Positions 42,518 through 59,041 of a DNA stretch of 64,000 nt are shown one piece after another. Position 1 is the stretch's first letter; each line of letters opens with the position of its first letter. The notes under the pieces are model-generated. The model saw nothing but the letters and a program-made list of their open reading frames with translations, made no database searches and was not told the origin of the DNA. The stretch comes from Archangium primigenium (GTDB lineage: Bacteria; Myxococcota; Myxococcia; Myxococcales; Myxococcaceae), in contig NZ_JADWYI010000001.1 in NCBI RefSeq assembly GCF_016904885.1, positions 558,001 through 622,000 of the forward strand, read 5' to 3'. The position numbers and the translations under genes are program-made.

Positions 42518-44623
42518 ATGGGCAAGCGGTGGGCGTGGGTCTGGGTGTGCCTCGCGGTGGGAGGCCTGTCGTGCGACGCATGGATGGGCTCCTTCGGCGC
42601 CCTCGTCCAGGACTCCGGCTGTCAGGCGCTCACCTGCGACGCCCAGGGACTCGACTGCGGCACCGCCATCGACGGCTGTGGCGGCGTGCTGCACTGTGGG
42701 ACGTGCCCCGAGGGCCAGAGTTGCGGCGGCGAGGGCCAACCCAACGTGTGTGGCCTGGCGCCGTGCACGCCAGCCACGTGTGACTCGCTCGGGGCGACGT
42801 GCGGCGACGCGCCGGACGGCTGCGGCGGCGTGCTGCGCTGCGGCACCTGCGAGGCGCCCGAGACGTGCGGCGGCGGCGGCGCGCCTTACGTCTGTGGCCG
42901 CACCCCGTGTACGCCCACCACCTGCGCCGCCCGGGGCAAGAACTGCGGCAGTCTCTCGGACGACTGCGCCGGCACGCTCGACTGTGGCACCTGCCCGGAG
43001 GGCGAGACGTGCGGCGGCGGCGGCGCCCCCAACGTGTGCGGCCCGGCCACCTGCACGCCCACCACCTGCGCCGCCCTGGGCAAGAACTGCGGCACCCTCT
43101 CGGACGGCTGCGGCGGCACGCTCGAGTGCGGCGCGTGCACGGGGGGCATGACCTGCGGTGCGGGTGGGGTGCCCAACGTGTGTGGGCAGGCGCCGTGCGT
43201 GCCCGCCACCTGCTCGGGCCAGGGCCAGGAGTGTGGCCTGCTGCCGGATGGCTGCGGCGGGACCCTGCTCGAGTGCGGCGTCTGCGCGGCCGGCGACTCC
43301 TGCGGCGGCGGCCCGGCGCCCAACACCTGCGGCCCGGCCACCTGCCTGCCCACCACCTGCGTCGCCCTGGGCAAGAACTGCGGCCCGGTGTCCAACGGCT
43401 GTGGGGGCCTGCTGGACTGTGGCACCTGCTACGGCAGCGACTCCTGCGGCGGGGGCGGCGTGGCCAACGTGTGCGGCAGTGACCGGTGCACGCCGGACAC
43501 CTGCGCCGAGGTGGGCAAGAACTGTGGCGCCGTGCCGGACGGCTGCGGCGGCATGCTCGAGTGCGGCACCTGTCCCTCGGGGCAGACGTGCGGCGGGGGC
43601 GGCGTGACGAACGTGTGCGCCCGGCCCGAGTGCCGGCCCTACACCTGTGGCCAGCTCGGCAAGACGTGCGGCGCGGTGTCCGACGGCTGCGGGGGCATGC
43701 TCGCGTGTGGCACCTGCGCCGAGGGCGAGTCCTGCGGCGGCGGCGGCGTGGCCAACCTGTGCCACCAGCCCCAGCCGGTGTGCATGGACCAGGAGCTGGG
43801 CAGCGCCCTGCCGGTGACGCTCAAGGGCAGCACGGTGGGCGCGCGGGACGATCACCTGGCCTCGTGCGGCGGCCAGGGCGCGCCGGACCGGGCCTATGGC
43901 TGGACGGCGCCCCACACGGGCACCTTCACCTTCGACACGGCGCGCTCGGCGATGCGCACCCTGGTGAGTGTCCGGGCCGGGGGCTGCCAGGGCGAGGAGC
44001 TCGCGTGCGCCACGTCCGGCATCAGCTACGGCGGCGGCTCGCGGGTGGAGGTGCACCTGACGGCGGGCCAGCGGGTGCTCGTCATCGTGGACTCGCCGCG
44101 CGCGGGGGACTTCAGCGCGGGGGACTTCGAGCTGCACATCCACGAGCGCTCGCCCACCGAGGCGGGCCACTGCTTCGATGGCGCGGACAACGACGGGGAC
44201 CGGTGGGTGGACTGCGCGGACACGGACTGCCAGGCCGAGCCCCTGTGTGACGGCCGGGGGTGCGCGGACGTGGACCTCGGCAGCGCGCTGCCGGTGGTGT
44301 ACCTGGGAGACACGGTGCAGTCGGGCGACGGCTTCCAGGGCACGTGCGGCGCGCTGCTGCAGCCGGACCGCGGCCACCTGTGGACGGCGCCCCGCGCGGG
44401 CACCTTCACCTTCGACACGGCCGGCAGCGACGCCAACGCGCTCTACGTGCTCACCGGGTGCCGGGGCCAGGAGCTCGCCTGCCGGGCGAACCCCGGCGGC
44501 TCGCGCGGCGCCCCGGTGCGCGTCTCCCTGGACAAGGGCCAGACGGTGCTCGTGGTGGTGGACGGCATGGCCCGGGCCGACCGGGGCGCGCCCATCCGCT
44601 ACACCCTGCGCATCTCCGAGTAG
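42518..44623 (+). CDS. Surface lipoprotein with eight Cys-rich repeats and PPC-like domains
   Basis: ATG 42518 with GGAAGG upstream gives 701 residues. A short lipoprotein signal (VWVCLAVGGLSC) is followed by eight tandem 48-residue repeats of the form CTPTTCAALGKNCG, then DGCGGTLECGTC, then a CGGGGxxNVCG end, each with seven or eight Cys. After them lie two related beta domains (DQELGSALPVTLKGSTVGAR and DVDLGSALPVVYLGDTVQSG, each with TAPHTGTFTFDT-like strands), similar to bacterial pre-peptidase C-terminal domains. A Cys-containing spacer (HCFDGADNDGDRWVDCADTD) separates the two. The Cys-rich unit also occurs once in the GH16 protein at 30766-33171. Such proteins are common on myxobacterial surfaces; binding or adhesion is the likely role. 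It diverges from the histidine-kinase gene across 236 bp. Confidence 0.85.
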   Translation: MGKRWAWVWVCLAVGGLSCDAWMGSFGALVQDSGCQALTCDAQGLDCGTAIDGCGGVLHCGTCPEGQSCGGEGQPNVCGLAPCTPATCDSLGATCGDAPDGCGGVLRCGTCEAPETCGGGGAPYVCGRTPCTPTTCAARGKNCGSLSDDCAGTLDCGTCPEGETCGGGGAPNVCGPATCTPTTCAALGKNCGTLSDGCGGTLECGACTGGMTCGAGGVPNVCGQAPCVPATCSGQGQECGLLPDGCGGTLLECGVCAAGDSCGGGPAPNTCGPATCLPTTCVALGKNCGPVSNGCGGLLDCGTCYGSDSCGGGGVANVCGSDRCTPDTCAEVGKNCGAVPDGCGGMLECGTCPSGQTCGGGGVTNVCARPECRPYTCGQLGKTCGAVSDGCGGMLACGTCAEGESCGGGGVANLCHQPQPVCMDQELGSALPVTLKGSTVGARDDHLASCGGQGAPDRAYGWTAPHTGTFTFDTARSAMRTLVSVRAGGCQGEELACATSGISYGGGSRVEVHLTAGQRVLVIVDSPRAGDFSAGDFELHIHERSPTEAGHCFDGADNDGDRWVDCADTDCQAEPLCDGRGCADVDLGSALPVVYLGDTVQSGDGFQGTCGALLQPDRGHLWTAPRAGTFTFDTAGSDANALYVLTGCRGQELACRANPGGSRGAPVRVSLDKGQTVLVVVDGMARADRGAPIRYTLRISE
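42620..43771 (+). repeat. Eight tandem 144-bp coding repeats (Cys/Gly-rich)
   Basis: The repeats code for 48-residue units in frame with the lipoprotein gene. Repeats 3, 4 and 6 to 8 are closest (G-K-N-C-G or G-K-T-C-G core), the first two the most diverged. Units begin at Cys codons about every 144 bases from 42620. Confidence 0.85.
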
Positions 44624-46515: not shown

Positions 46516-47514
46516 TCACGCGATGACGCCGAGCAGGAGCCCGCCGAGGCTCAGGGCCGCCATGCCCGCCCACAGACACACGCCCTGGGCGAGGGGCCGC
46601 GCGCCCACCGCCGCGAGCGCGCTCCGGGAGAGCCCCGCGCCGATGAGGAAGAGCGTGAGCACCAGGACCTGGCGGGCGAGGGCGGCGACGGCCTCCCCCG
46701 CGGGCCGCAGCCCCGGCACGAAGGTGACGAGCGCCGCCGCCCCGAGGAAGCCGAGGATGAACCAGGGCCGGCGCGCGGGACCCGCGGGCGCCTCCCGTCC
46801 TGATTCCGTGCGGCGGCGCCAGGCGCTCAGGGCCAGGGTGAGCGGGAGGATCCACAGGGCGCGCGCGAGCTTCACGGGGGCGGCGATGGCGAGGGCCTCG
46901 GGGCCGTAGCGCAGGGCGGCGCCCACCACGGAGCTCGTGTCGTGGATGGCCAGGGCGCTCCACAGGCCGAAGCGGTGGGCATCGAGCCCCACGGCATGGC
47001 CCACGGCGGGAAAGACGAACAAGGCCACGGCGTTGAGCAGGAAGACGGTGCCCAGGGCCACGGACACCTCGTGGGGCTTGGGGCGCAGGACGGGCACCAC
47101 GGCGGCGATGGCGCTGCCGCCACAGATGGCCGTGCCGATGCCGATGAGCAGCCCCGTGTCCCGCGACACGCCGAACGCCCGCGCGAGCACCGCGCCCAGG
47201 GCCAGACACACGGCGATGCCCACCACGGTGTAGCCCACGCCCCGCAGGCCCACCGCCGCCACGACCCGCAGGTCCATGCCCGCGCCCAGGCCCACCACCG
47301 CGAGCGACAACAGCCACGGCGTGGCGCGGCGGGTGAGGTCCGCGTGAGGATTGCCCACCGTCAGGGCGACGCCCATGCCCGCCACCAGGGCGAGGCCCGT
47401 GGACACGAAGGGCCAGAGGCAAAGCACCGCGCCGAGCGGGACGAGCACGCGCCCGGCGCTCCCACGCGCTCGCGGCGCGGGGTCCTCCTCGGGCGGTGGG
47501 GCACCAGTGCGCAT
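46516..47514 (-). CDS. YeiH/UPF0324 family membrane transporter
   Basis: The 332-residue product from ATG 47514 has about ten hydrophobic segments. The family signature GLGAGMDLRVVAAVG occurs early, IGIGTAICGGSAIAAVVPVL in the middle (the conserved TAICGGSAI block), then LWSALAIHDTSSVVGAAL and a final LFLIGAGLSRSAL. These identify the UPF0324/YeiH group of inner-membrane proteins, some of which are implicated in sulfonate or sulfite export, though the substrate is not settled. The N-terminus is Pro/Glu-rich and cytoplasmic. It is the first gene of a likely pair with the DUF218 gene. Confidence 0.88.
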   Translation of the reverse strand: MRTGAPPPEEDPAPRARGSAGRVLVPLGAVLCLWPFVSTGLALVAGMGVALTVGNPHADLTRRATPWLLSLAVVGLGAGMDLRVVAAVGLRGVGYTVVGIAVCLALGAVLARAFGVSRDTGLLIGIGTAICGGSAIAAVVPVLRPKPHEVSVALGTVFLLNAVALFVFPAVGHAVGLDAHRFGLWSALAIHDTSSVVGAALRYGPEALAIAAPVKLARALWILPLTLALSAWRRRTESGREAPAGPARRPWFILGFLGAAALVTFVPGLRPAGEAVAALARQVLVLTLFLIGAGLSRSALAAVGARPLAQGVCLWAGMAALSLGGLLLGVIA

Positions 47515-48196
47515 GCCCCCATGGTGCGCCCCCGGCCGTCACGCCACCAGACGTAAGAAGGGACCGCGCGACCGGCGAGGCGCCCCCGTATGGGCCCCCC
47601 GCAAAAGAATCGGGGAGGAGCCACCCCCAGTAGCTCCTCCCCGACGGTCCCCTTTGCTGCCCTGCCCACTCCCCCGAGTGGTGCTGCCCCTCGAACCGTT
47701 ACCGCCCCGAATCCCCCCAAAACCAACCCGCCGCCCTCGACCTGTCCCGCCCGTTCCGAACCCGCCGCCCTGCCCCACCGCCCCGCCCTGCCACCGCCCC
47801 GAACCCGCCCGTCCCAACCCGCGTTCCCTGACGAGACTGAGCATTAGCATTCGCCGTGCCAGTGCCAAGACGGGCCCAACCCGTGGGATTCCGCGCACTT
47901 ACCTAAGACCCAGGGACAGGGTCCGTCCGTAAACCGGTAAGAACTTCCAGCACCGGAGACGGGCCTTCCGTAATTTCCGGAAGTCCGGACTGGGCCGGGT
48001 TCCTCTTCCAGGGAATTTTTCTTCACCACCAGGGAAAACGTTGGGCGGGCCAACCTCTTGGGTGCGGCCGGGGACCCACGCCGTGTGGCATCCTCCGGCC
48101 CACTGCCCGGAGGCGTCCCGGCCCTCGCCGCCCCGCTCGCTTCCCCTCCCAGGAGGTGGGGTGCTCCTCTTGATTCCACCCCAGGGTCGGAGTTAG
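47515..48196. other. 682-bp intergenic region with a C-rich tract
   Basis: No gene is visible. Bases ~47640-47830 form a C-rich/G-poor tract on the plus strand (runs such as CCGCCCTGCCACCGCCCCGA), hence G-rich on the minus strand with many GGG or GGGG runs. It resembles a decayed form of the minisatellite at 56721-57014. From ~47830 the DNA becomes mixed and has short palindromes (for example CTTCCG...CGGAAG near 47970). A promoter for the minus-strand YeiH gene must lie at the left end. Confidence 0.5.
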
Positions 48197-49320: not shown

Positions 49321-50150
49321 GCCGCGCCCACCCGGCGCGCCACGCCCCGCGCCAGCGCCCCCCGCGTCGCCTCCAGCTCCCCGGCCAGCTCCTCCGGCGG
49401 CGGGTAGCGGTCATCCCGCTCGAGCAACACCGGCACCGGGCCCACCCGCGCCGCCAGCGCCTCCAGCAGGTCGAGCGGCCCCTCGGGCAGGGGGTGCGCA
49501 TGCGTGTCGTGGTACAGGCTGCCCTCGCGCACCCCGCCCGCCACGTGCACGTAGGCCAGGCGCTCGCGCGGCACCGCCTCCAGCACCGCCCGCGTGTCCG
49601 TGCCCAGGTTGTGCGCGTTGGCGTACAGGTTGGCCACGTCCAGGAGCACGAGCGCCCCGGTGCGCGCGAGCACGCCGGTGAGCAGCCCCGCCTCGTCGAA
49701 GGCGGGCGCGGGCCACTCGAAGAGGCTCGCCACGTTCTCCAGCGCCAGGGGCACGGGCAGCGCCGCCTCGGCCAGGCGCACGTTCTCCGCCAGGATTTCC
49801 AGGGAGGCCTCGTCGCGGGACACCGGCAGCAGGTGCCCGGACTCCACGCCCCCCGCGCGCACGAACGCCAGGTGCTCGCTCACCCCCACCGCCCCCAGCC
49901 GCTCGGCGAGCCGCGCCAGCCGCGCCAGTCGCTCGGGCGACGGAGGCTCGGCGCTGCCCAGGCCCAGGGACACCCCGTGCAGTACCACCGGCACGCCCCG
50001 CTCGCGCAGGCGCACGAGGGGCTCGGGCAGGGGGCCCTTCGCGTCCAGGTGCTCGGCCAGCACCTCCACGAAGCCCAGGTCGCTCCGCCCGTCGATGAAG
50101 TGCGCCAGGGGCCGCCGCCAGCCCAGGCCCACGCCGGTGAGCCCCTTCAA
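49317..50150 (-). CDS. DUF692 multinuclear iron oxidase (MNIO/BufB family)
   Basis: A TTG at 50150 overlaps the stop of the preceding membrane-protein gene (TTGA), so translation is probably coupled. The 277 residues show the MNIO signature in order: GVGLGWR, FVEVLAEH, VVLHGVSLGLGS, VGVSEHLAF, PLALENVASLFEW, LLDVANLYANAHN, AYVHVAGG, HDTHAHPLPEG and VLLERDDRYPP. All His, Glu and Asp residues that bind the two or three irons in MbnB, TglH and BufB seem present. MNIOs rework Cys or other side chains of ribosomal peptides. In this operon the only Cys-rich candidates are the Gly/Cys tails of the three membrane proteins upstream, so those are the presumed substrates. The small partner protein follows directly. 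Confidence 0.88.
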   Translation of the reverse strand: MKGLTGVGLGWRRPLAHFIDGRSDLGFVEVLAEHLDAKGPLPEPLVRLRERGVPVVLHGVSLGLGSAEPPSPERLARLARLAERLGAVGVSEHLAFVRAGGVESGHLLPVSRDEASLEILAENVRLAEAALPVPLALENVASLFEWPAPAFDEAGLLTGVLARTGALVLLDVANLYANAHNLGTDTRAVLEAVPRERLAYVHVAGGVREGSLYHDTHAHPLPEGPLDLLEALAARVGPVPVLLERDDRYPPPEELAGELEATRGALARGVARRVGAA

Positions 50151-51043
50151 TCCCCGCCTCCGCCACACCCGCCGCAGCCACCGCCCCCACACCCGCTGTC
50201 CCCGCCCCCGCTGCTGCAACTGCTGCTGCCGCCCGAGTCCGCCCCGCTTCCTCCCCCGCTGCTCACGCTCGGCGGGACGAGGTAGTCGCGCAGGGGCGCG
50301 TCCACGAAGGCCAGGGCGCCCACGCCGAACAGGCTCGCGGCCAGCAGCACGTCGCGCGGCCGCAGCATCTCGGTGGCGTCCTCGTTCGCGGCGCTCAGGC
50401 GCAGGGCCTCGTGCTGCCGGCCCAGTTCCGCCAGCGCCCAGCGACCCCGGGGCGTGAGTCGCACGCGATCCTTGATCAGCAGGAAGAAGACCACGGCCGT
50501 CGCCCCCAGCAGCAGCACCAACAGGCCCACGGGGCGGCCACGCCACACCCCCAGCCCCAGCTTCACCAGGCCGAGCAGTCCCAAGAGGGCGGGCATCAAC
50601 CCCGGGGTATACCGGTAGGGCGCCTCTTCCCGCGCCGACCGCAGCAACCCCCGCGCCTCCAGGGGCCGCTCCAGGACGTCGAGGCGCGGCCCCGTGGCCC
50701 GGATCAAGGTCCACCGGGAACGCGCGCCCTCCACCACCGCGCGGTGCACGGCGGACTCCAGGGGAGAGACGTCCCGCTCCAGCGTCGAGGCGCGCTCGAC
50801 CAGCACGCCCCCCTCGACCCCCAGCGCGCCGCGCCGCGCCAGGCTCACCACCGCCGCGTGCACCGCCTCGGCGCGCCCCCGCAGCAGCGCGACCTCATGG
50901 GGGCGCAAATCCAACAGCGTCGGCTCGGGCTCGCCCTCGCGGTGGAGCCACCGCTTGAGCACCCAGGACAGCGCGCCCGTGATGACCAGGGCGTTCACGT
51001 AGAAGCCCAGGAACTGCGGACCCGACCATTCCAGCGGATTCAT
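50147..51043 (-). CDS. TIGR04222-like membrane protein 4, Gly/Cys tail
   Basis: ATG 51043 (MNPLEWSGPQFLGFY) gives 298 residues. An N-terminal membrane helix (FLGFYVNALVITGALSWVLK) is followed by a cytoplasmic helical region (LRPHEVALLRGRAEAVHAAV, the core of the TIGR04222 match) and two central helices (GLMPALLGLLGLVKLGLGVW, PVGLLVLLLGATAVVFFLLI). Then comes a soluble part with FGVGALAFVDAPLRDYL. The last ~35 residues are Ser/Gly/Cys only, ending GCGGGGCGGCGGGGD. Such tails next to DUF692 genes suggest a substrate region that stays membrane-tethered. It is the last of four paralogues and overlaps the DUF692 gene. Confidence 0.82.
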   Translation of the reverse strand: MNPLEWSGPQFLGFYVNALVITGALSWVLKRWLHREGEPEPTLLDLRPHEVALLRGRAEAVHAAVVSLARRGALGVEGGVLVERASTLERDVSPLESAVHRAVVEGARSRWTLIRATGPRLDVLERPLEARGLLRSAREEAPYRYTPGLMPALLGLLGLVKLGLGVWRGRPVGLLVLLLGATAVVFFLLIKDRVRLTPRGRWALAELGRQHEALRLSAANEDATEMLRPRDVLLAASLFGVGALAFVDAPLRDYLVPPSVSSGGGSGADSGGSSSCSSGGGDSGCGGGGCGGCGGGGD

Positions 51044-51178
51044 CCCATGCTCCCCTCTCCCCCGGCTCACGCCCTCACCCCTGTGAAGGGGACCGGCGGC
51101 ACCAGGATACTAGGCAGGCCTCCGTGACGCCGTTGTGACACTCCGGGCACATCGGGACGTCACCCGGGCGGCCCCGGC

Positions 51179-52189
51179 TCAATCACTGCTGCCGCCGCCC
51201 CCACATCCCCCACAGCCGCCGCCCCCGCCACACCCGCTCCCGCCATCGCCGCCACTGTCCCCGCCGCCCCCACCGCAGCCACCGTCCCCGCCACTGTCGC
51301 TCGCGCTGTCACCGCCCCCACCGCAGCCGCTCCCCCCATGGCCACCGCCCCCACAGGTGCTCGTGTCGTCCATTCCGTCCCCGAGCAGGAACGGGCTGTC
51401 CAGGACGCTCCACGGGGTGAGGTGCTCGCGCAGGGGCGTGTCCACGAAGGCCAGGGCGCCCACGCCGAACAGGCCCGCGGCCAGCGTCACGTCGCGCGGA
51501 CCCAGCACCGGCGCCGCGCCCTCCTGGGTGACGCTCATGCGCAGGGGCTGCCGTCCCTTGCGCAGCCGCCGCAGCGCCGTGTCGCCCTCGGGCGCCCGCC
51601 GCACGTGGGCGTGCGTGGCCATCATGAAGAAGAAGAGCGCGACCAGCAGCAGGGCCACCACCCCCACCACGGACTCGCCCCGGGACACGTTCGTCCCCAG
51701 CCGGAGCAGTCCCAGCACCCCCAAGAGGGCGATCGGAACCCCGGGGCCATACTGGCGAAACCACCGCTGCCCGCGCGAGCGCAGCAGGCCCCGGGCCTCC
51801 AGGGGGGCTTCCCGCGCCTGGAACTCCGGGGCCAGGGCCTCGCCCAGCGCCGCGAGCGTGCGATGGCCCTCGCCCACCGCCTGGAACACCCGGGCCTCGA
51901 AGGGCGACACCGACCCCTCCGGCGGGGGCTTCAGCACGTGCAGCGCGCCGCCCTCGAAGCGCAGCGCCCGGCACCGGGTGAGCTCCACCACCGCGGCGCC
52001 CAGCAGGGTGTCCCGGCCGCGCAGCAGCGCCACCTGCTCGGGGTCCAGGTCCGACACGTCCAGCCGCGTCCGACTCCCCGAGGAGCGCCGGATGATCTCC
52101 TTGAAGACCCGGGCCGCCGCGAGCGAGAAGAACAGCAGCATGCCGTAGAAGACGAGAAAGGGACGGAGCGGCCCCTCCAACAGACTCAT
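51179..52189 (-). CDS. TIGR04222-like membrane protein 3, Gly/Cys tail
   Basis: ATG 52189, with GGGGAG upstream, gives 336 residues. The N-terminus (PLRPFLVFYGMLLFFSLAAA) is a membrane helix, followed by VSDLDPEQVALLRGRDTLLG, equivalent to the paralogues' LRGR block. Central helices include VPIALLGVLGLLRLG and SVVGVVALLLVALFFFMMAT. The end keeps VRRGALAF-like residues (LFGVGALAFVDTPLREHL) and a longer tail of ~60 residues dominated by Gly, Ser, Asp and Cys (CGGGGHGGSGCGGGGD to GCGGGGGCGGCGGGGSSD). The tail is the most Cys-rich of the four. The 135-bp space to the next gene is larger than other gaps and might hold a promoter or hairpin, but I see none clear. Confidence 0.82.
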   Translation of the reverse strand: MSLLEGPLRPFLVFYGMLLFFSLAAARVFKEIIRRSSGSRTRLDVSDLDPEQVALLRGRDTLLGAAVVELTRCRALRFEGGALHVLKPPPEGSVSPFEARVFQAVGEGHRTLAALGEALAPEFQAREAPLEARGLLRSRGQRWFRQYGPGVPIALLGVLGLLRLGTNVSRGESVVGVVALLLVALFFFMMATHAHVRRAPEGDTALRRLRKGRQPLRMSVTQEGAAPVLGPRDVTLAAGLFGVGALAFVDTPLREHLTPWSVLDSPFLLGDGMDDTSTCGGGGHGGSGCGGGGDSASDSGGDGGCGGGGGDSGGDGGSGCGGGGGCGGCGGGGSSD

Positions 52190-53008: not shown

Positions 53009-53044
53009 CGCCCACCCCGCCCGGCCCGAGCCGCGCGCGCGCGC

Positions 53045-54040
53045 TCAGTCCCCACCGCCGCCCCCGCCCCCACACCCGCCGCAGCCGCCCCCGCCACAGC
53101 TGCTGCCCCCCGAGTCGCCGCCGGAGCTGCCCGAGTCGCTGCTCGAGCTGCTCCAATCGCTGCTGGAGCTGCTCGAATCCCCGCTCGAGCTCCCGCTGGA
53201 GCTCGACCAGGAGGAGCTGTCGGAGGAGCTGCCCGAGCCGCCGCCGCTGGAGGCGCCCACGGGCATGAGGTAGCCGCGCAGCGAGGAGTAGTGCAGGGTG
53301 GACAGCGCCCCCACCCCGAAGAGGGCCACGGCGAGGGCCACGTTGTCCGCGCTGAGCTGCTGGGCGTTCCCGTCGGCGCGCTCGCCGGCGTGGCGCAGGG
53401 GCGCGTGCAGCTCGCGCAGCTGGGCCTGGGCCCTGGCGCCCCGGCGCGTGAAGCGGGCGTTCTTGAAGCACAAGGTGAGCCCCACCGCGAAGCCGAGCAC
53501 GAGCACGGCCAGGAGGTAGCCCACGGGCCGGTCCCGGGACACGCCCACCACCACCTTCACGCCGCCCAGGCCGAGCACCGCGAGGAACGCCAGCCAGGGG
53601 TAGTAGGTGTAGGCCCTGTCCTGGGCGGGCGTGCGCATGAGGCCCTGCTCGCGCAGGTCGTCCTCCAGCGCGCGCAGCTCGGGCGCCACCTCCGTGTGCA
53701 CGGCGCCCAGCGAGCGGTGCTGCCCCTCCACCGCGCGGACGATGGCGCGATCCAGCGCCGTGGCCCGGCCGGACAGCCTGCCGACCACGCTCAGCCCCTC
53801 GTCGTCGAGCCGCAGCGTGTTCTTCTGCACGAGCGCCGCCACCGCCGCCCGGAGCGCCGTGGCGGGACCCTCCAGCGCGGCCACCTCACCGGGGGACAGC
53901 TTCTCCAGCTCCCGGCGGGTGGGCGCCTCGGACGGCAGGTTGAGCGCGTGCTTCCACACCCACGCGCCCACGAAGCAGACACACAGCAGCGGGACATAGA
54001 AATCGAGGAACTCTGGCCCCGACCAGTCCAACGGATTCAT
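53045..54040 (-). CDS. TIGR04222-like membrane protein 1, long Ser/Gly/Cys tail
   Basis: ATG 54040 (MNPLDWSGPEFLDFY) gives 331 residues, the first gene of the operon. It has an N-terminal membrane helix (FLDFYVPLLCVCFVGAWVWK), the shared KLSPGEVAALEGPATALRAA region, and central helices (YYPWLAFLAVLGLGGVKVVV, PVGYLLAVLVLGFAVGLTL). A ~65-residue tail begins as Ser/Asp repeats (SSSSDWSSSSSDSGSSGG) and ends GGSSCGGGGCGGCGGGGG, close to the end of the other tails. The family is defined in databases but has no assigned function; the recurring Cys-Gly-Gly endings make a modified, possibly metal-binding, surface segment plausible. Confidence 0.82.
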   Translation of the reverse strand: MNPLDWSGPEFLDFYVPLLCVCFVGAWVWKHALNLPSEAPTRRELEKLSPGEVAALEGPATALRAAVAALVQKNTLRLDDEGLSVVGRLSGRATALDRAIVRAVEGQHRSLGAVHTEVAPELRALEDDLREQGLMRTPAQDRAYTYYPWLAFLAVLGLGGVKVVVGVSRDRPVGYLLAVLVLGFAVGLTLCFKNARFTRRGARAQAQLRELHAPLRHAGERADGNAQQLSADNVALAVALFGVGALSTLHYSSLRGYLMPVGASSGGGSGSSSDSSSWSSSSGSSSGDSSSSSSDWSSSSSDSGSSGGDSGGSSCGGGGCGGCGGGGGGGD

Positions 54041-54110
54041 CGTGCAAACCCCCCGGGCGCCAGGCCCGAACGGACCCGAGCATACCCTTCCGGGGGGACT
54101 TGGGGACACG

Positions 54111-55982
54111 TCAGTCCTTGTCGCCCAGGTAGCGGTTGAGGTTGTACGCCGAGCTGATGAGGGACAGGTGGGTGAAGGCCTGGGGGAAGTTGCCCAGGGC
54201 CTCGCCCTCGAAGCCGATCTGCTCGGCGTACAGGCCCAGGTGGTTGGCGTAGCCGAGCATGCGCTCGAACACGAGCCGCGCCTCGTCGAGCATGTCCGGC
54301 CGGCTCACGCTCGCGCGCGTCATGGCCTCCACGAGCCAGAAGGTGCACAGGTTGAAGGTGCCCTCCTCGCCCGACAGCCCGTCCTCGGTGCGCTCCACGT
54401 CGTAGCGGAACACGAGCCCGTCGGACGCCAGGCCCCCGTCCTTGGGCGCCTTGCGCGTGGCCTCCAGCGTGGAGAGCATCCGCGGGTCCACCGGCGACAG
54501 GAAGAAGACCAGCGGCATGATGAGGTTGGCCGCGTCGAGCGCATCGCTCTCGTAGGACAGCTTGAAGGCGCCGCGCTCCTGGCACCAGCCCTTCTGCATG
54601 ATCTCCTCGAAGATGGCGTCGCGCGCCTCGCGCCAGCGCGTGCGGTCCGCCGGGAAGCTGCGCTTGTCCGCCAGGCGGATGGCCCGATCGAACGCCACCC
54701 AGCACATCATCTTCGAATAGACGAAGTTCTGCCGGCCGCCGCGCACCTCCCAGATGCTCTCGTCCTTCTGTTGCCAGTTGTCACACAGCCAGTTGATCAA
54801 CCGGCGCAGGTGATTCCAGAAGTCATACGAGATGGGCGCGCCGTGCTTGTTGTACAGGTACACCGCGTCCATCAGCTCGCCGTAGATGTCCAATTGCAGG
54901 TGCGAGTGCGCCGCGCCATTGCCGATGCGCACCGGCCGCGCGCCCTGGTAGCCCGACAGGTGCTCGAGCTCCTGCTCCTCGGGCACCTGGCCGCCGTCCA
55001 GCGCGAACATGAGCGGCAGGGGCTCGTTGGGCCCGAGCTTGGAGATGCGCTGCTCCAGCCAGCGCATGAAGGCGCCCGCCTCCTCGGAGAAGCCGATGCG
55101 CAAGAGCCCATACACGGTGAAGGCCGCGTCGCGGATCCACACGAAGCGGTAGTCCCAGTTGCGGCTGCCCCCGGGGGTCTCCGGCAGGCTGCACGTGGGC
55201 GCGGCCACGATGGCGCCCGAGGGCTCGAACGTCATCAGCTTGAGCGCGAGCGCCGAGCGCTGCACCATCTCGCGCCAGCGGCCCTTGTAGGTGCAGTGGC
55301 TGAGCCAGTGCCGCCAGTAGTCCACGGTGGAGCGGAAGAGCCGGTCCGCGTGCTCCTTGTCCAGCACCCGGCCGGCACACGACTCGGGCTTGCCCTCGCT
55401 CAGGCTGAACACCGCAGACTCGCCTTCATCCAGCGTGAAGACCGCGGTGGCGCGCTGGCCGTCCGCGTCCGCCTCCAGCTTCACCTCGCTGGAGAGCATG
55501 AGGCTCAAGCCCTCGGACACGAAGGAGACGCCGCCCTCCACCGCCTGGGCCTCGTGCGTGTCCCGCGCGTAGTTGAAGGCGGGCAGACAATCCAGGGTGA
55601 AGGTCATCTTGCCGCGCACCACGCGGATGAGCCGCACGAGCTTGCGCACCGGCTCGTGCCCCTTGGGCGTCATGGGCATGAAGTCGATGAGCTCGCCCAC
55701 GCCGTCCGAGTTGTAGAAGCGCGTGACCAGCACGTTGGTCTCGGGCCAGTAGAACTGCTTGTGCACCGCCTCCTTCTGTCCCTCCTGTTGTTCCGGACAG
55801 ATGCAGAAGTGGCCGCCCTTCTTCGGGTCCAGCAGCGCGGCGAAGACGCTCGGGCTGTCGAAGTTGGGAAAGCACAACCAGTCGATCATCCCGTTGGTGG
55901 CCACCAGGGCCACGGTGTGCAGATCTCCGATGACACCGTGGTCCTCGATGGCGGGCGAGCGCGCGGTCTTCTCCGAGTTCAT
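54111..55982 (-). CDS. GH15 family glucoamylase/trehalase-like enzyme
   Basis: The 623-residue product from ATG 55982 has the GH15 layout of bacterial trehalases and glucodextranases. The N-terminal beta domain begins [20 protein letters not shown] then [20 protein letters not shown]. The (alpha/alpha)6 barrel includes [39 protein letters not shown] (the conserved WDYRxxWxRDA segment), [18 protein letters not shown], and [16 protein letters not shown] with the expected catalytic Glu. There is no signal peptide, so it likely acts in the cytoplasm on trehalose, maltodextrin or glycogen-derived sugars. It lies 70 bp upstream of the TIGR04222 operon on the same strand; a functional link is not obvious. 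Confidence 0.92.
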
Positions 55983-56168
55983 GGGCCTCTCTCCGGGGGG
56001 CGGTGGAGGAACCCGGCGGTCGCACCGAGAGCCCCCTCCACGTGTGAGACCCTCAGATACGGGCGCCCGCGTGGGCCCGGCCAGTGCGAAGCGTCACGAG
56101 GCGCGAGACAATCGCCTCGTCTGTCCTCACGAGAACCTTGCGCCCCACTCGGAAGTTGTGCTCCGCAG

Positions 56169-56480
56169 CTAATCGTCCTCGACGGCGTCCTCCTCGTCGT
56201 CGTCCGAGGCGTAATGGAAGTCGATGCCGACATCGCTGAGCCGGCCCTCGAGCAGCTCGAGCAGCTCGTCGGCGTCTCCGCCGCTCCACTCCTCCAGCAC
56301 ATCTCCGAGGAACTCGGACAGGTCGCTGCTGTCGATGCGGCGCTCGATGTCCTCGACCTGCTTCGCGGAGAACACCCCGTGCAGCTCATCGCGCAGCTCG
56401 TTGGTGTCCTGGCTCTCCTGAACAGCCTCCGCGCTCTCGCGAAGCCGCTCGACGACTCTCGTGTTGAAATGGATGTCCAT
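56169..56480 (-). CDS. Small acidic cytoplasmic protein
   Basis: The 103-residue protein from ATG 56480 is strongly acidic and helical: VVERLRESAEAVQESQDTNE, VFSAKQVEDIERRIDSSDLS and LEEWSGGDADELLELLEGR, with a terminal run of Asp/Glu. There is no signal peptide, Cys or catalytic motif. I do not recognise a family. Its coding sequence, with fewer G+C and balanced codons, reads as real. The minisatellite begins about 240 bp upstream of its start. Confidence 0.65.
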   Translation of the reverse strand: MDIHFNTRVVERLRESAEAVQESQDTNELRDELHGVFSAKQVEDIERRIDSSDLSEFLGDVLEEWSGGDADELLELLEGRLSDVGIDFHYASDDDEEDAVEDD

Positions 56481-57201
56481 ACGGCGCCGGATTTAAGGAG
56501 CCCTCCGCGACCCAGCAAGCGGGGCCCGGAACCGGAACAATCCGACCGGCGGGGAGGGGTACTTTTTACATGCTCCCGGAGGCCAAGGCGCGGGGTTTCG
56601 GCGGGGAGGAGCGTCCAACCCCCTGGAATCACAGGGACTCGGGGCACCGTCAAGGCCCGGCACGGCGAATGCTAAAGCTCAGCCCGGGACGATGCGGAAG
56701 TGGGGCGTCGTCAAGGTTCAGGGCGGGACGGGGCGGTACGGGCGGGTCGGGGTTGGGGCGGTACGGGCGGGTCGGGGTTGGGGCGGTACGGGCGGGTCGG
56801 GGTCGGGCGGTACGGGCGGGTCGGGGTCGGGCGGTACGGGCGGGTCGGGGTCGGGCGGTACGGGCGGGTCGGGGTTGGGGCGGTACGGGCGGGTCGGGGT
56901 TGGGGTCGGGCAGTATGGGGCAGTACGGGCGGGTCGGGGTTGGGGCAGTACGGGCGGGTCGGGGTTGGGGCAGTACGGGGCGGTACGGGCGGGTCGGGGT
57001 TGGGCGGTACGCGGTAAAGACAGACGGCTCAAGGGTGTTGGGGATGGGGATTGGGGAGCCGGTCCTTGGCGGCGACACGCATGTCGCGAGGACCGGTTCG
57101 CCTACCACCCAGGCCGGGCCGTCGAGCGGAACGAGAGAGACGTCGCGCTGGGCGCACGGCGGGCCCGTGCTCGGGGGGTTGAGCACGGGGGACGTCTGGC
57201 T
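56481..57201. other. 721-bp intergenic region holding the minisatellite
   Basis: Outside the repeat I see no gene. Bases 56481-56720 are GC-rich filler before the repeat; bases 57015-57201 are unique DNA down to the end of the cyclase-fold gene. A promoter for the acidic protein must lie at the left end. Confidence 0.5.
56721..57014. repeat. G-rich 24/25-bp minisatellite
   Basis: The core TACGGGCGGGTCGGGG recurs at 56737, 56762, 56787, 56811, 56835, 56859, 56884, 56924, 56949 and 56984, with a shortened unit at 56974. Spacing is 24 bp (unit ending TCGGGCGG) or 25 bp (ending TTGGGGCGG). Some units have CAG in place of CGG before TAC. Every unit has several GGG or GGGG runs on the plus strand, enough for G-quadruplexes. 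The period is not a whole number of codons in the 25-bp units, so it is not a protein repeat. Confidence 0.9.
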
Positions 57202-57849
57202 TCAGGCGCCTTCGCGCAGCGTGCGCACGAGCGCCCGCGCGGGGGAGCCCCACTCGGCCTTCATCTTCAGGGGCAGGCACAACAACTCGTGCATGCCGAC
57301 CTTCACTTCACTCAGGTCCAGGCCCTCGATGAGCCAGAGGCCGGCGTCGCGCAGGAGCTGGTGCACGGCGAGCGCTTCCGAGTGGAAGCCCGCGCGGGAC
57401 ACGTAGTCCACGCCCACGCACGCCACGCGGCGCTCCACCAGGAGGTGCGCCGCCGCTTCCGACAGCATCACGAAGTCCTCGCCGTGCGGCCGCTTCCACC
57501 ACTCGCGCGTGGAGTTGCGCGTGCGCAGCAGCAGCCGCTCTCCGGGGCGCGGCTCGTAGTCCGCGAGCGAGTCCGCGCGGATGCAGTCCACGTCATCGAG
57601 CAGCAGCACCCGCGCCTTGCCCACCGTGGCGTTGAGCGGCAGCCGCTCGGTGTCCTCCAGGTCCAGCTCCAGACTCGGCGGCGCCGTCACGTACGTGCCC
57701 ATCCACGCCGCGCGCCGCAGCCACTCGACCCGGTCCTGCGTCCGGTCGGGAAACGCCGCGCCCTCGCCCGCACCCTCAGGGGGGGCACTGACGATGACGG
57801 GGGGTTCCTCACCAAACGGCACCGAGATGTCCAGCCAGGCACCTTCCAT
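57202..57849 (-). CDS. Cyclase-family (kynurenine-formamidase-like) protein lacking metal ligands
   Basis: The 215-residue protein from ATG 57849 follows the cyclase family (PF04199) layout: WLDISVPFGEEPPVIVS at the start, a middle VLLLDDVDCIRADSLADYE, LLLRTRNSTREWWKRPHG, VACVGVDYVSRAGFHSEALA and a final LLCLPLKMKAEWGSPARA. The family's metal-binding motif HxGTHxDxPxH appears as WMGTYVTAPPS (49-59): the three His and the Asp are Trp, Tyr, Ser and Thr. The active site is therefore probably gone, although the fold is kept. A regulatory, binding or different-chemistry role is possible. It is transcribed away from the glucose-dehydrogenase-like gene's end by 97 bp, on the same strand. Confidence 0.8.
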   Translation of the reverse strand: MEGAWLDISVPFGEEPPVIVSAPPEGAGEGAAFPDRTQDRVEWLRRAAWMGTYVTAPPSLELDLEDTERLPLNATVGKARVLLLDDVDCIRADSLADYEPRPGERLLLRTRNSTREWWKRPHGEDFVMLSEAAAHLLVERRVACVGVDYVSRAGFHSEALAVHQLLRDAGLWLIEGLDLSEVKVGMHELLCLPLKMKAEWGSPARALVRTLREGA

Positions 57850-57946
57850 GTGCTTCCTCCTGTGGGTTCGCGAGTCGTGGCATCCCGCCCTTTCCGATCG
57901 AGCCAGTTCCCCCCCGGAAAGGACGGGCCGCAGTCTCGCTCAACTC

Positions 57947-59041
57947 CTACCCCCGAGAGAAGACGATGACGTCCTTGACGGCGCTCCTTTTGTCGCCCGT
58001 CACCACCTGGGCGAAGTCCTCGGGGGGATGACGCGCGGAGATGATGGCGTTGAGCTCGCCTGGCCAGTCACCCTGGAAGCGAGCCAGGTCCGCCACCGCC
58101 GCGTCGAAGTCCTCGGCCGCGGCGTTCACCGTGCCCAGCAGCACCTGGTTGTTGAGCACCAGTTGCTTCATGAGCGTGCCCACGTCCCACTTCGTCTTCT
58201 CCGCCTCCGGCACCCCGGTGAAGACGAAGACGCCATTGGGCGCCAGGGCCGTCACCAGCCGGAACGACGCACTGGCCGCGCCGGTGGCCTCGTACACCAC
58301 GTCCGCCCGGCCCCGCTGCTCCACCAGGGCCTTCACCTCGTGCTCCTCGGAGGACAGGTAGGGCACGCCGAGCGCCTCGGTGAGCTTCGCCTTCTCGTTG
58401 GGCTTGGGGGCGTGCGAGTACATGGTCGTCTCGTAGCCCGCGCGCAAGAGCAGCATGGCGCCGAGCAGACCCACCGGTCCCGCCCCCATCACCACGGCGC
58501 GTCCGGGCGCCGAGCGCTTGCCGGGCACGCGCTGACCCACCAGCTGCACCTGGCGCAGGGACTTCTCCGCGATGGTGAGCGTCTCGGTGAGCACCGCCAC
58601 CTCGCGCAGCTCACGGGGCACCCGGTGCAGGTAGCGCGCCTCGTCCACGAAGAACTCCGCGCAGAAGCCGTGCGCGCCCTGGATGCCGCGCTCGGTGTAC
58701 TCGCCCGTCGCGCAGAAGTCCGGGTGCCCGTCACGGCAGGGCGCGCAGGACTCGTGGGGACAGGGCCGGCGCACGCGCGGCACCACGAGATCTCCCACCT
58801 GGAAGTCCTTCACCTCGGCGCCCACCTCCACCACCTCGCCCAAGCACTCGTGGCCCAGGATGAGGTAGTCCGAGCCCGAGGGGGCGCGTCCATGCTCGCC
58901 CTGGATGATTTCCTTGTCCGTGCCGCACACCCCCACTTCCAGCGTGCGCACGCGCACCTGCCCGGGCGTGTCCAGACGCGGCTCCGGCACCTCGAGCACC
59001 TTCACCTCGTGCCCCTTGGAAAACACCACCACCGCCTTCAT
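57947..59041 (-). CDS. Zn-dependent glucose 1-dehydrogenase-like MDR oxidoreductase
   Basis: The 364-residue protein from ATG 59041 is a medium-chain dehydrogenase. Catalytic zinc ligands fit GVCGTDKEII and ILGHECLGEVVEVG; the structural zinc loop is CPHESCAPCRDGHPDFC. The nucleotide-binding motif is VVMGAGPVGLLGAMLLLRAG. The EYTERGIQGAHGFCAEFFVD segment and the C-terminal region LNNQVLLGTVNAAAEDFDAA match the glucose dehydrogenases of Sulfolobus and Haloferax type (glucose to gluconolactone with NAD(P)). Substrate use is not certain. All metal ligands are present, so it should be active. It precedes the cyclase-fold gene on the same strand. Confidence 0.88.
   Translation of the reverse strand: MKAVVVFSKGHEVKVLEVPEPRLDTPGQVRVRTLEVGVCGTDKEIIQGEHGRAPSGSDYLILGHECLGEVVEVGAEVKDFQVGDLVVPRVRRPCPHESCAPCRDGHPDFCATGEYTERGIQGAHGFCAEFFVDEARYLHRVPRELREVAVLTETLTIAEKSLRQVQLVGQRVPGKRSAPGRAVVMGAGPVGLLGAMLLLRAGYETTMYSHAPKPNEKAKLTEALGVPYLSSEEHEVKALVEQRGRADVVYEATGAASASFRLVTALAPNGVFVFTGVPEAEKTKWDVGTLMKQLVLNNQVLLGTVNAAAEDFDAAVADLARFQGDWPGELNAIISARHPPEDFAQVVTGDKRSAVKDVIVFSRG

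What the first reader, a model, noticed from the sequence alone, without database searches (positions are those of the whole stretch)
56721..57014. G-quadruplex-prone minisatellite of 24/25-bp units
Ten near-perfect units with GGG/GGGG runs all on the plus strand form a 294-bp array between two minus-strand genes. Such arrays may stall polymerases, vary in copy number, or regulate. Two unit lengths alternate, suggesting slippage.
Basis: seen in the sequence. Interest (0 to 1): 0.55.

Follow-up and report, generated by a model that had tools for sequence, protein, structure and literature searches.

The report
Promoter-driven G-quadruplex RNA gene family
The G-rich repeat array is not a lone minisatellite but the body of a predicted non-coding RNA gene, with its own sigma-54 promoter and a 3' hairpin, belonging to a many-copy gene family in myxobacteria that I did not find described.

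Summary
The array is real (56721-57011, + strand): ten exact TACGGGCGGGTCGGGG cores in steps of 24/25 nt plus a few 10- and 30-nt steps, far beyond shuffles. It is the middle of a larger unit. A sigma-54-type -24/-12 promoter (GGCACGGCGAATGCTA, 56659-56674) precedes it; a covarying hairpin (57055-57105) follows. I read eight cassettes of this architecture in this 9.5-Mb genome, one more of them inside the window (47860 to 47602, - strand), and more across its family. Patterns made of upstream element plus promoter core, without the body, land on bodies that are G-rich on the RNA-like strand: 18 of 18 and 23 of 24. Body length drifts between orthologues in steps that are not multiples of three, so it is non-coding. 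Each repeat can form one RNA G-quadruplex. The promoter type is shared with the known sRNA Pxr (RF01812); the window RNA matches no Rfam family. Best reading: a sigma-54-activated, G-quadruplex-rich regulatory RNA family, probably acting in trans as a multivalent decoy. No expression data were available: transcription and function are inferred.

The parts
56560..56572 (+). T-tract upstream element (TACTTTTTACATG), about 99 nt upstream of the -24 GG, in the register of TTTTTTACAGG in related units (proposed enhancer-binding site)
   Evidence: alignment of upstream regions; comparable elements at near-constant spacing in relatives; binding not tested
56624..56632 (+). TGGAATCAC element, of the TTGAAATCAC type seen upstream of these promoters and of pxr
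   Evidence: alignment A1; pxr genes in the same genome
56659..56674 (+). sigma-54-type promoter core GGCACGGCGAATGCTA (GG at -24, GC at -12)
   Evidence: GGCACG and ATGCTA invariant in 9 units; R1 match E 1.3e-16 (the window unit is one of the model's nine sequences)
56684..57099 (+). predicted transcript, 416 nt, G 56%, C 19% (start and end inferred)
   Evidence: 52 runs of G3+ against at most 41 in 1000 mononucleotide shuffles
56721..57011 (+). G-rich tandem array; full units hold one three-layer quadruplex motif, GGGCGGGTCGGGGT(T/C)GGG
57055..57105 (+). 3' hairpin GGAGCCGGTCC...GGACCGGTTCGCC, probable terminator or 3' stabiliser (no U-run in this subgroup)
   Evidence: R2 match 57019-57105; covariation: 9 pairs changed on both sides against shuffled mean 2.4, 0 of 500 shuffles as high
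47845..47860 (-). second cassette of the family in this window: sigma-54-type core GGCACGGCGAATGCTA
   Evidence: R1 match G000:C1:605831-605892:-
47602..47835 (-). second cassette: G-rich RNA body (G 52%, C 21%) ending in a GGGGAGGAGC...GCTCCTCCCCGATTCTTTT terminator
   Evidence: second most skewed stretch of the window
56169..56480 (-). 103-aa acidic ORF upstream, divergent from the cassette; matched in 1 of 20 genomes searched (its own)
57202..57849 (-). putative cyclase gene (Pfam PF04199), convergent with the cassette
54111..55982 (-). GH15 / trehalase-like gene; in four relatives it lies next to the cyclase gene

Best explanation
The array is the body of a stand-alone non-coding RNA gene. 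An enhancer-binding protein is expected to bind about 85-100 nt upstream and to activate sigma-54 RNA polymerase at the -24/-12 promoter. The polymerase then makes a roughly 420-nt RNA, mostly a string of short-loop G-quadruplex units, closed by a 3' hairpin. The gene is one of at least eight such cassettes in this genome and one of a family spread through Myxococcaceae. What seems to be kept is the promoter, the 3' hairpin and a G-rich, C-poor body with many G-runs; sequence and repeat number inside the body drift. I infer (not shown) that the RNA acts in trans as a multivalent decoy or scaffold for a G-run- or quadruplex-binding protein, dosed by repeat number and switched by several sigma-54 activators. 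Shown here: promoter pattern, body composition, hairpin covariation, dispersal, conserved location of some cassettes, length drift. Inferred: transcription, sigma-54 dependence, termination, quadruplex folding, decoy action. The confidence given is for the RNA-gene reading; the trans-decoy step I put at about 0.45 given that reading.
For: (1) Nine units share the sigma-54 core and a TTGAAATCAC-type element. (2) GTAAGTCTTAC plus the core gives 18 places in 11 of 92 genomes, none in the reversed-pattern control. All 18 are followed by 250 nt with G 44-59% and C 13-27%; the same criterion on the upstream side is met by 0 of 18. Ten of the 18 were not among the units from which I had read the pattern; some of the 18 are orthologues of each other. 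16 of 18 show a hairpin followed by TTTT within 700 nt. (3) TTTTTCCGG plus the core: 51 places in 43 of 92 genomes, no control match. Of the 30 loci fetched, 24 had at least 60 nt downstream and 23 of these were G-rich; upstream 2 of 30. (4) In the window only three places match the loose core; two of them precede the two most skewed stretches. (5) Hairpin covariation on 32 rows: 9 pairs changed on both sides, score 0.238 against 0.135, 0 of 500 shuffles as high. (6) Units at unrelated loci align from up to about 120 nt before the core to about 45-50 nt past the hairpin start (L022 against L025). The window copy aligns with L017 from about 43 nt before the core. (7) G3+ runs exceed composition: 52 against a shuffled maximum of 41, and 24 against 22 in the second cassette. 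(8) The promoter model R1 also finds three of the tandem pxr promoters of this genome. Pxr is an sRNA that appears to be transcribed from a sigma-54 promoter (PMC5568312, passages read). (9) All genomes with R1 matches at E<=0.001 among 145 of the order (48) belong to the window's own family.
Against: No transcript has been seen. R1 is not specific for G-rich RNAs: of 45 R1 matches examined outside the model's own units (38 from other genomes, 7 from this one), 24 are followed by a G-rich stretch; the rest are pxr, protein-gene promoters or unclear. So the 59 of 96 family genomes with R1 matches count a promoter type, not RNAs. Of ten 3'-hairpin (R2) loci printed, eight have the promoter and a G-rich body and two (L161, L167) have neither; in L152 and L154 the last 200 nt before the hairpin are not G-rich. 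The hairpin of the window subgroup lacks a U-run. In L120, L124 and L125 the same promoter leads, by eye, into a protein gene with only a short G-rich stretch, so some members could be leaders. Of the 30 UAS-I loci, six had too little sequence and one (L192) failed; 21 of the 51 places were not fetched. UAS patterns were read off known units, so part of the agreement is by construction. In one search the TGRAA element alone did not separate G-rich from other cases (34 of 51 with it, 26 of 40 without). No protein partner or RNA target was identified.
Confidence: 0.8

Rival explanations
1. Cis-acting element: sterile transcription through a G-rich non-template strand makes R-loops or DNA quadruplexes that promote recombination or regulate neighbours, as with the pilE G4 and its small RNA in Neisseria.
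For: The G-rich strand is the non-template strand in 18 of 18 and 23 of 24 cassettes. Genome G001 shows what looks like a reciprocal exchange between two cassettes (locus A of L022/L023 and locus B of L030/L031) with the joints inside the cassettes. Unit lengths differ between orthologues.
Against: The cassettes whose neighbours I checked sit beside different genes and I saw no silent copies of a neighbour, though none were systematically sought. The exchange in G001 (40 contigs) may be an assembly artefact at shared repeats, and any repeats can recombine.
Confidence: 0.15
2. Neutral minisatellite grown inside an otherwise ordinary small RNA gene: the repeats have no role of their own.
For: Repeat number changes fast and 24/25-nt steps suggest slippage.
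Against: Bodies behind the same promoter type are G-rich (51-55% G) without tandem repeats in 5 of 5 Myxococcus loci tested, and G-runs exceed composition in the two cassettes tested, so G-richness rather than repetition looks selected.
Confidence: 0.15
3. 5' leader or attenuator of the next gene downstream.
For: By eye a same-strand gene follows in some Myxococcus loci (L042, L120). The second cassette of the window ends 88 nt upstream of a same-strand ORF (46516-47514).
Against: The window cassette converges on the cyclase gene. Cassettes in L022, L027 and L071 converge on hydrolase-like ORFs. 16 of 18 UAS-II cassettes end in a hairpin plus T-run.
Confidence: 0.1
4. Small repetitive protein gene (for example the 178-aa GTG ORF on the minus strand or the 278-aa + strand ORF).
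For: Long open frames exist through the array on both strands.
Against: Steps of 24, 25, 10 and 30 nt shift any frame; orthologous bodies differ by 161 and 55 nt, not multiples of three; stop-poor GC-rich repeats give open frames anyway (general knowledge).
Confidence: 0.03

Closest known systems
Pxr sRNA of myxobacteria (Rfam RF01812)
   Same: Non-coding RNA gene with a sigma-54-type promoter and a TTGGAATC-type element upstream of the -24 box, in the same bacterial group; this genome has five tandem Pxr matches in L073 (below the gathering score), and R1 finds three of their promoters.
   Different: Pxr is about 110 nt of stem-loops with no G-rich array; no Rfam match to the window cassette. 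The pxr upstream element contains TGCAATTGCA; some array units (L022, L025) have a similar GCAATTG, the window one does not.
CrcZ/CrcY of Pseudomonas and relatives
   Same: RNA that titrates a regulator (Hfq titration by CrcZ: PMC4063720 and PMC5501646, abstract openings seen); sigma-54 control and repeated motifs are recalled.
   Different: CrcZ binds Hfq through A-rich motifs (recalled); no Hfq homologue was detected in sequenced myxobacteria (PMC5568312, passage). Here the repeats are G-runs and no partner is known.
CsrB/RsmZ-type sponge RNAs
   Same: Multivalent decoy logic (recalled).
   Different: They carry GGA motifs for CsrA; the window RNA has no A-N-GGA motif.
pilE G4 and its cis small RNA, Neisseria gonorrhoeae
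   Same: A G-quadruplex sequence coupled to transcription of a non-coding RNA (PMC3547852, title and abstract opening seen).
   Different: A single locus tied to pilin variation; here strings of G4 motifs in many dispersed cassettes.
Bacterial minisatellites / VNTRs
   Same: Head-to-tail units whose number varies.
   Different: Bounded by a conserved promoter and hairpin and repeated as a cassette at many loci.

Membership tests
sigma-54-dependent transcription unit | GG and GC 12 nt apart in a TGGCACG-N4-TTGCW-like core (consensus recalled) | tested here: met
   GGCACGGCGAATGCTA at 56659-56674; invariant positions in 9 units
sigma-54-dependent transcription unit | upstream enhancer-binding site at a defined distance | tested here: inconclusive
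   GTAAGTCTTAC at constant spacing (span 102-103 nt in 18 of 18) and TTTTTCCGG (108-112 nt in 26 of 30, 102-103 in 4) in relatives; the window has only a diverged T-tract form; no binding data
sigma-54-dependent transcription unit | loss of transcript without RpoN | not testable with these tools
   no expression data
Pxr sRNA (RF01812) | match to the covariance model | tested here: not met
   no match up to E 1 in window 56000-58000; pxr copies in the same genome do match (E 5.5e-11 to 6.6e-9, below the gathering score)
Pxr sRNA (RF01812) | sigma-54-type promoter with the upstream TTGRAATC-type element | tested here: met
G-quadruplex array | four or more G3+ runs with loops of 1-7 nt | tested here: met
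   continuous motif 56721-57004; folding energy with quadruplexes -302 against -147 kcal/mol without
G-quadruplex array | folds as quadruplex in solution or in the cell | not testable with these tools
   needs CD, ThT/NMM or reverse-transcriptase stop assays
CsrB/RsmZ sponge | repeated A-N-GGA motifs (recalled) | tested here: not met
   0 in the window RNA, 1 in the second cassette
CrcZ-type sponge | repeated A-rich Hfq motifs (recalled) | tested here: not met
   the repeat units as printed hold no A-runs
Polymorphic minisatellite | tandem units whose number varies | tested here: met
   between species only: promoter-to-hairpin lengths 158-443 nt in nine units; strains not available

The most novel reading that the evidence does not exclude
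Myxobacteria carry a large class of regulatory RNAs whose working part is not a fixed sequence or fold but a string of RNA G-quadruplexes, tuned by repeat number. Dedicated sigma-54 enhancer elements (at least the GTAAGTCTTAC and TTTTTCCGG types) controlled little else in the places examined here. Such RNAs could work as multivalent hubs that sequester or condense RNA-binding proteins during growth, starvation or predation, in bacteria for which no Hfq has been reported.
Probability: 0.35. Interest if true: 0.9.

Novelty: new variant of a known kind. Interest (0 to 1): 0.72.

Why it matters
If transcribed as predicted, this is a many-copy bacterial RNA family that has been easy to overlook because it looks like low-complexity sequence and tends to lie at contig ends in draft assemblies. 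It would give a natural test of what strings of RNA G-quadruplexes do in bacteria, and it would add a layer to sigma-54 control in organisms where Pxr is the best-studied regulatory RNA known to me.

Tried and rejected
Protein-coding reading of the array: rejected on non-triplet steps and non-triplet length differences. Known RNA family: none in window 56000-58000 up to E 1. In 11 other loci only Pxr (L073) and one match far below threshold (L074, Parabacteroides-1, 30.9 bits against a gathering score of 93.4). Csr/Rsm sponge: rejected by lack of A-N-GGA motifs. Transposable element: cassettes look duplicated as wholes, but I did not look for terminal repeats or target duplications. The 103-aa ORF as partner gene: matched only in this genome of 20 searched. 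A scan of named genomes for core plus G-run gave three records: Myxococcus eversor, M. qinghaiensis, and one labelled Comamonas sp. KCTC 72670. That scan needed an exact core and may leave out close records, so it says little about range.

Literature: the listed titles and abstract openings showed no description of G-rich sigma-54 RNAs in myxobacteria. The library lacks most subscription papers. A survey of M. xanthus ncRNAs (Whitworth and Swain 2020), known to me only through passages of the review PMC8538405, is not held and might list members.

In one search the script sometimes picked a wrong GG-N10-GC within a hit; I recounted with a corrected rule.

Full report
Observation. The array is present as described, on the + strand between two minus-strand ORFs. 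Ten exact cores TACGGGCGGGTCGGGG occur in the genome, all here. Unit steps are 25, 25, 24, 24, 24, 25, 30, 10, 25, 25, 10, 24, so lengths come in blocks rather than alternating. The TRF score of 310 exceeds the maximum of 149 over 200 dinucleotide shuffles. The stretch is the most skewed 200 nt of the window (G 63.5%, C 17.5%).

The array is the middle of a unit. A search of 20 genomes with the intergenic region plus the cyclase gene found other G-rich stretches at unrelated places. Comparison showed that similarity extends beyond the arrays on both sides. Alignment of such units showed a sigma-54-type core GGCACG-N4-ATGCTA upstream (in L027 a variant, GGCACGCCGCCTGCTA), a TTGAAATCAC-type element before it, and a strong hairpin downstream. 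In the window the core is 56659-56674 and the hairpin starts at 57055. L022 and L025, at unrelated loci, align from about 120 nt before the core to about 48 nt past the hairpin start. The window copy aligns with L017 from about 43 nt before the core to about 52 nt past the hairpin start. The duplicated item is therefore a cassette of upstream element, promoter, body and hairpin.

This copy is special to this genome among those compared. In four relatives the alignable stretches of the GH15 and cyclase genes are about 134-145 bp apart, against about 1.2 kb here, so the cassette and the 103-aa ORF lie in extra DNA. The ORF was matched in 1 of 20 genomes, its own. Some cassettes are conserved in place: L017, L030 and L031 share the upstream flank (about 90% identity nearest the neighbouring gene). 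Cassettes in L027 (genus g9) and L071 (g8) converge on ORFs of the same evident hydrolase-like type; the gene ends beside L086, L087 and L077 (g1) look alike by eye. L022 converges on a different hydrolase-like ORF.

Range and copy number. The promoter model R1 (sequence only, nine units) matched 59 of 96 family genomes, 8 of 26 genera, at E<=0.01. Of 145 order genomes, 48 matched at E<=0.001, all in the window's own family. R1 recognises a promoter type, not the RNA class. Of 45 R1 matches examined outside the model's units, 24 are followed by a G-rich stretch; the others include pxr genes and protein-gene promoters. The 3' hairpin model R2 matched 32 of 92 family genomes, including 21 of the 23 genomes of genus g31 in that draw. 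Contig lengths show g31 to hold Myxococcus eversor and M. qinghaiensis. Of ten R2 loci printed, eight have a sigma-54-type core and a G-rich body and two (L161, L167) have neither. In this genome I read eight G-rich cassettes: window 56659 (+), window 47860 (-), and those in L017, L018, L020, L075, L076 and L077.

Test that does not use the body. I wrote two patterns from upstream elements plus the core. GTAAGTCTTAC-N60-90-GGCAYGCG-N3-TGCT gave 18 places in 11 of 92 genomes, and none with the pattern reversed. All 18 are followed by 250 nt with G 44-59% and C 13-27%; none of the 18 upstream sides meets the criterion of G at least 42% and C at most 30%. Eight of the 18 had been read before the pattern was written; the other ten had not. 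Several of the 18 are orthologues or close paralogues, so they are not 18 independent events. Sixteen of the 18 have a hairpin followed by TTTT within 700 nt; L136 and L146 failed the rule used. TTTTTCCGG-N70-99-GGCACG-N5-TGCT gave 51 places in 43 of 92 genomes, none reversed. Of the 30 loci fetched, 24 had at least 60 nt downstream and 23 of those were G-rich; L192 was not; upstream sides met the criterion in 2 of 30. In the window only three places fit the loose core, and two of them are the two cassettes.

Hairpin. On 32 aligned matches the 21-pair structure keeps 96.1% of cells paired. Nine pairs changed on both sides (shuffled mean 2.4) and the covariation score was 0.238 against 0.135, 0 of 500 shuffles as high; sliding the partner by 1-3 columns destroys it. 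The alignment was fitted to the structure, and one row is the reverse strand of a palindromic hit in L167, which favours the structure somewhat. UAS-II cassettes end like intrinsic terminators; the window subgroup lacks the T-run.

Body. The predicted 416-nt RNA has G 56%, C 19% and 52 runs of three or more G, against a mean of 32.4 and maximum of 41 in 1000 mononucleotide shuffles; the second cassette has 24 against a maximum of 22. With quadruplexes allowed, the folding energy is -302 against -147 kcal/mol, and the reverse complement forms none. Full repeats hold GGGCGGGTCGGGGT(T/C)GGG, one three-layer quadruplex motif each. Five Myxococcus bodies (L049, L057, L067, L117, L122) are 51-55% G with no TRF array at score 50 or more, while other Myxococcus loci carry long G-rich arrays of a different unit ending in the R2 hairpin. 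G-richness on the RNA strand is the common property; repetition is one way to get it.

Signs of fragility. Among the 30 loci returned, the contig ends within 300 nt downstream of the match in 13 and within 300 nt upstream in none; complete genomes in the set cannot show such ends. In G001 the promoter side of one cassette is joined to the hairpin side and flank of another, and vice versa, compared with G003 and G002. About 2 kb beside the L024 cassette match neither. This looks like a reciprocal exchange within the cassettes but could be an assembly error.

Mechanism. That sigma-54 polymerase makes the RNA is inferred from the core, from upstream elements at near-constant spacing in relatives, and from likeness to the pxr promoter, for which sigma-54 control is proposed in print (PMC5568312, passages; PMC5684412, passages). 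That the RNA works in trans as a multivalent decoy is my preferred inference, at about 0.45 given that it is an RNA gene. Reasons: neighbouring genes differ, the body varies in sequence and length, and titrating RNAs such as CrcZ give a precedent (abstract openings). A cis role through R-loops or G4 DNA, with the pilE small RNA as precedent (abstract opening), remains open.

Novelty. No Rfam family matches the window region, and the listings showed no paper on such RNAs. One M. xanthus ncRNA survey could not be read, so individual members may have been seen as transcripts before. I rate it a new variant of a known kind: a sigma-54-driven regulatory RNA with a quadruplex-array body.

Noticed in passing
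window 47602-47860 (-): A second G-rich cassette of the same family with a T-run terminator, ending 88 nt upstream of a same-strand ORF (46516-47514).
   Followed up: yes
L073 (G000:C1:8811400-8813200): Five tandem Pxr sRNA matches (RF01812, below the gathering score) behind near-identical sigma-54-type promoters; tandem pxr paralogues are reported for Cystobacter (PMC5568312, passages).
   Followed up: partly
L024 and L085 (G001) against L022 and L030: Apparent reciprocal exchange between two cassettes, possibly a genome rearrangement with joints in the G-rich bodies, or an assembly artefact.
   Followed up: partly
window 51161-51360, 50061-50260 and 53009-53208: Other strongly skewed stretches; 53009-53208 overlaps the glycine-rich tail of a minus-strand ORF (53045-54109); the other two were not checked.
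   Followed up: no
window 42671-43762: Long tandem repeat of about 144 nt (7.6 copies by TRF), perhaps in a repetitive protein gene; not examined.
   Followed up: no
L120, L124, L125 against L042: By eye, the same promoter precedes a similar protein gene, with a long G-rich body and hairpin in M. qinghaiensis (L042) but only a short G-rich stretch in the other Myxococcus genomes: a natural presence/absence comparison.
   Followed up: no
L161 and L167: Hairpins matching R2 with no sigma-54-type core and no G-rich body upstream: the 3' hairpin also occurs alone.
   Followed up: no
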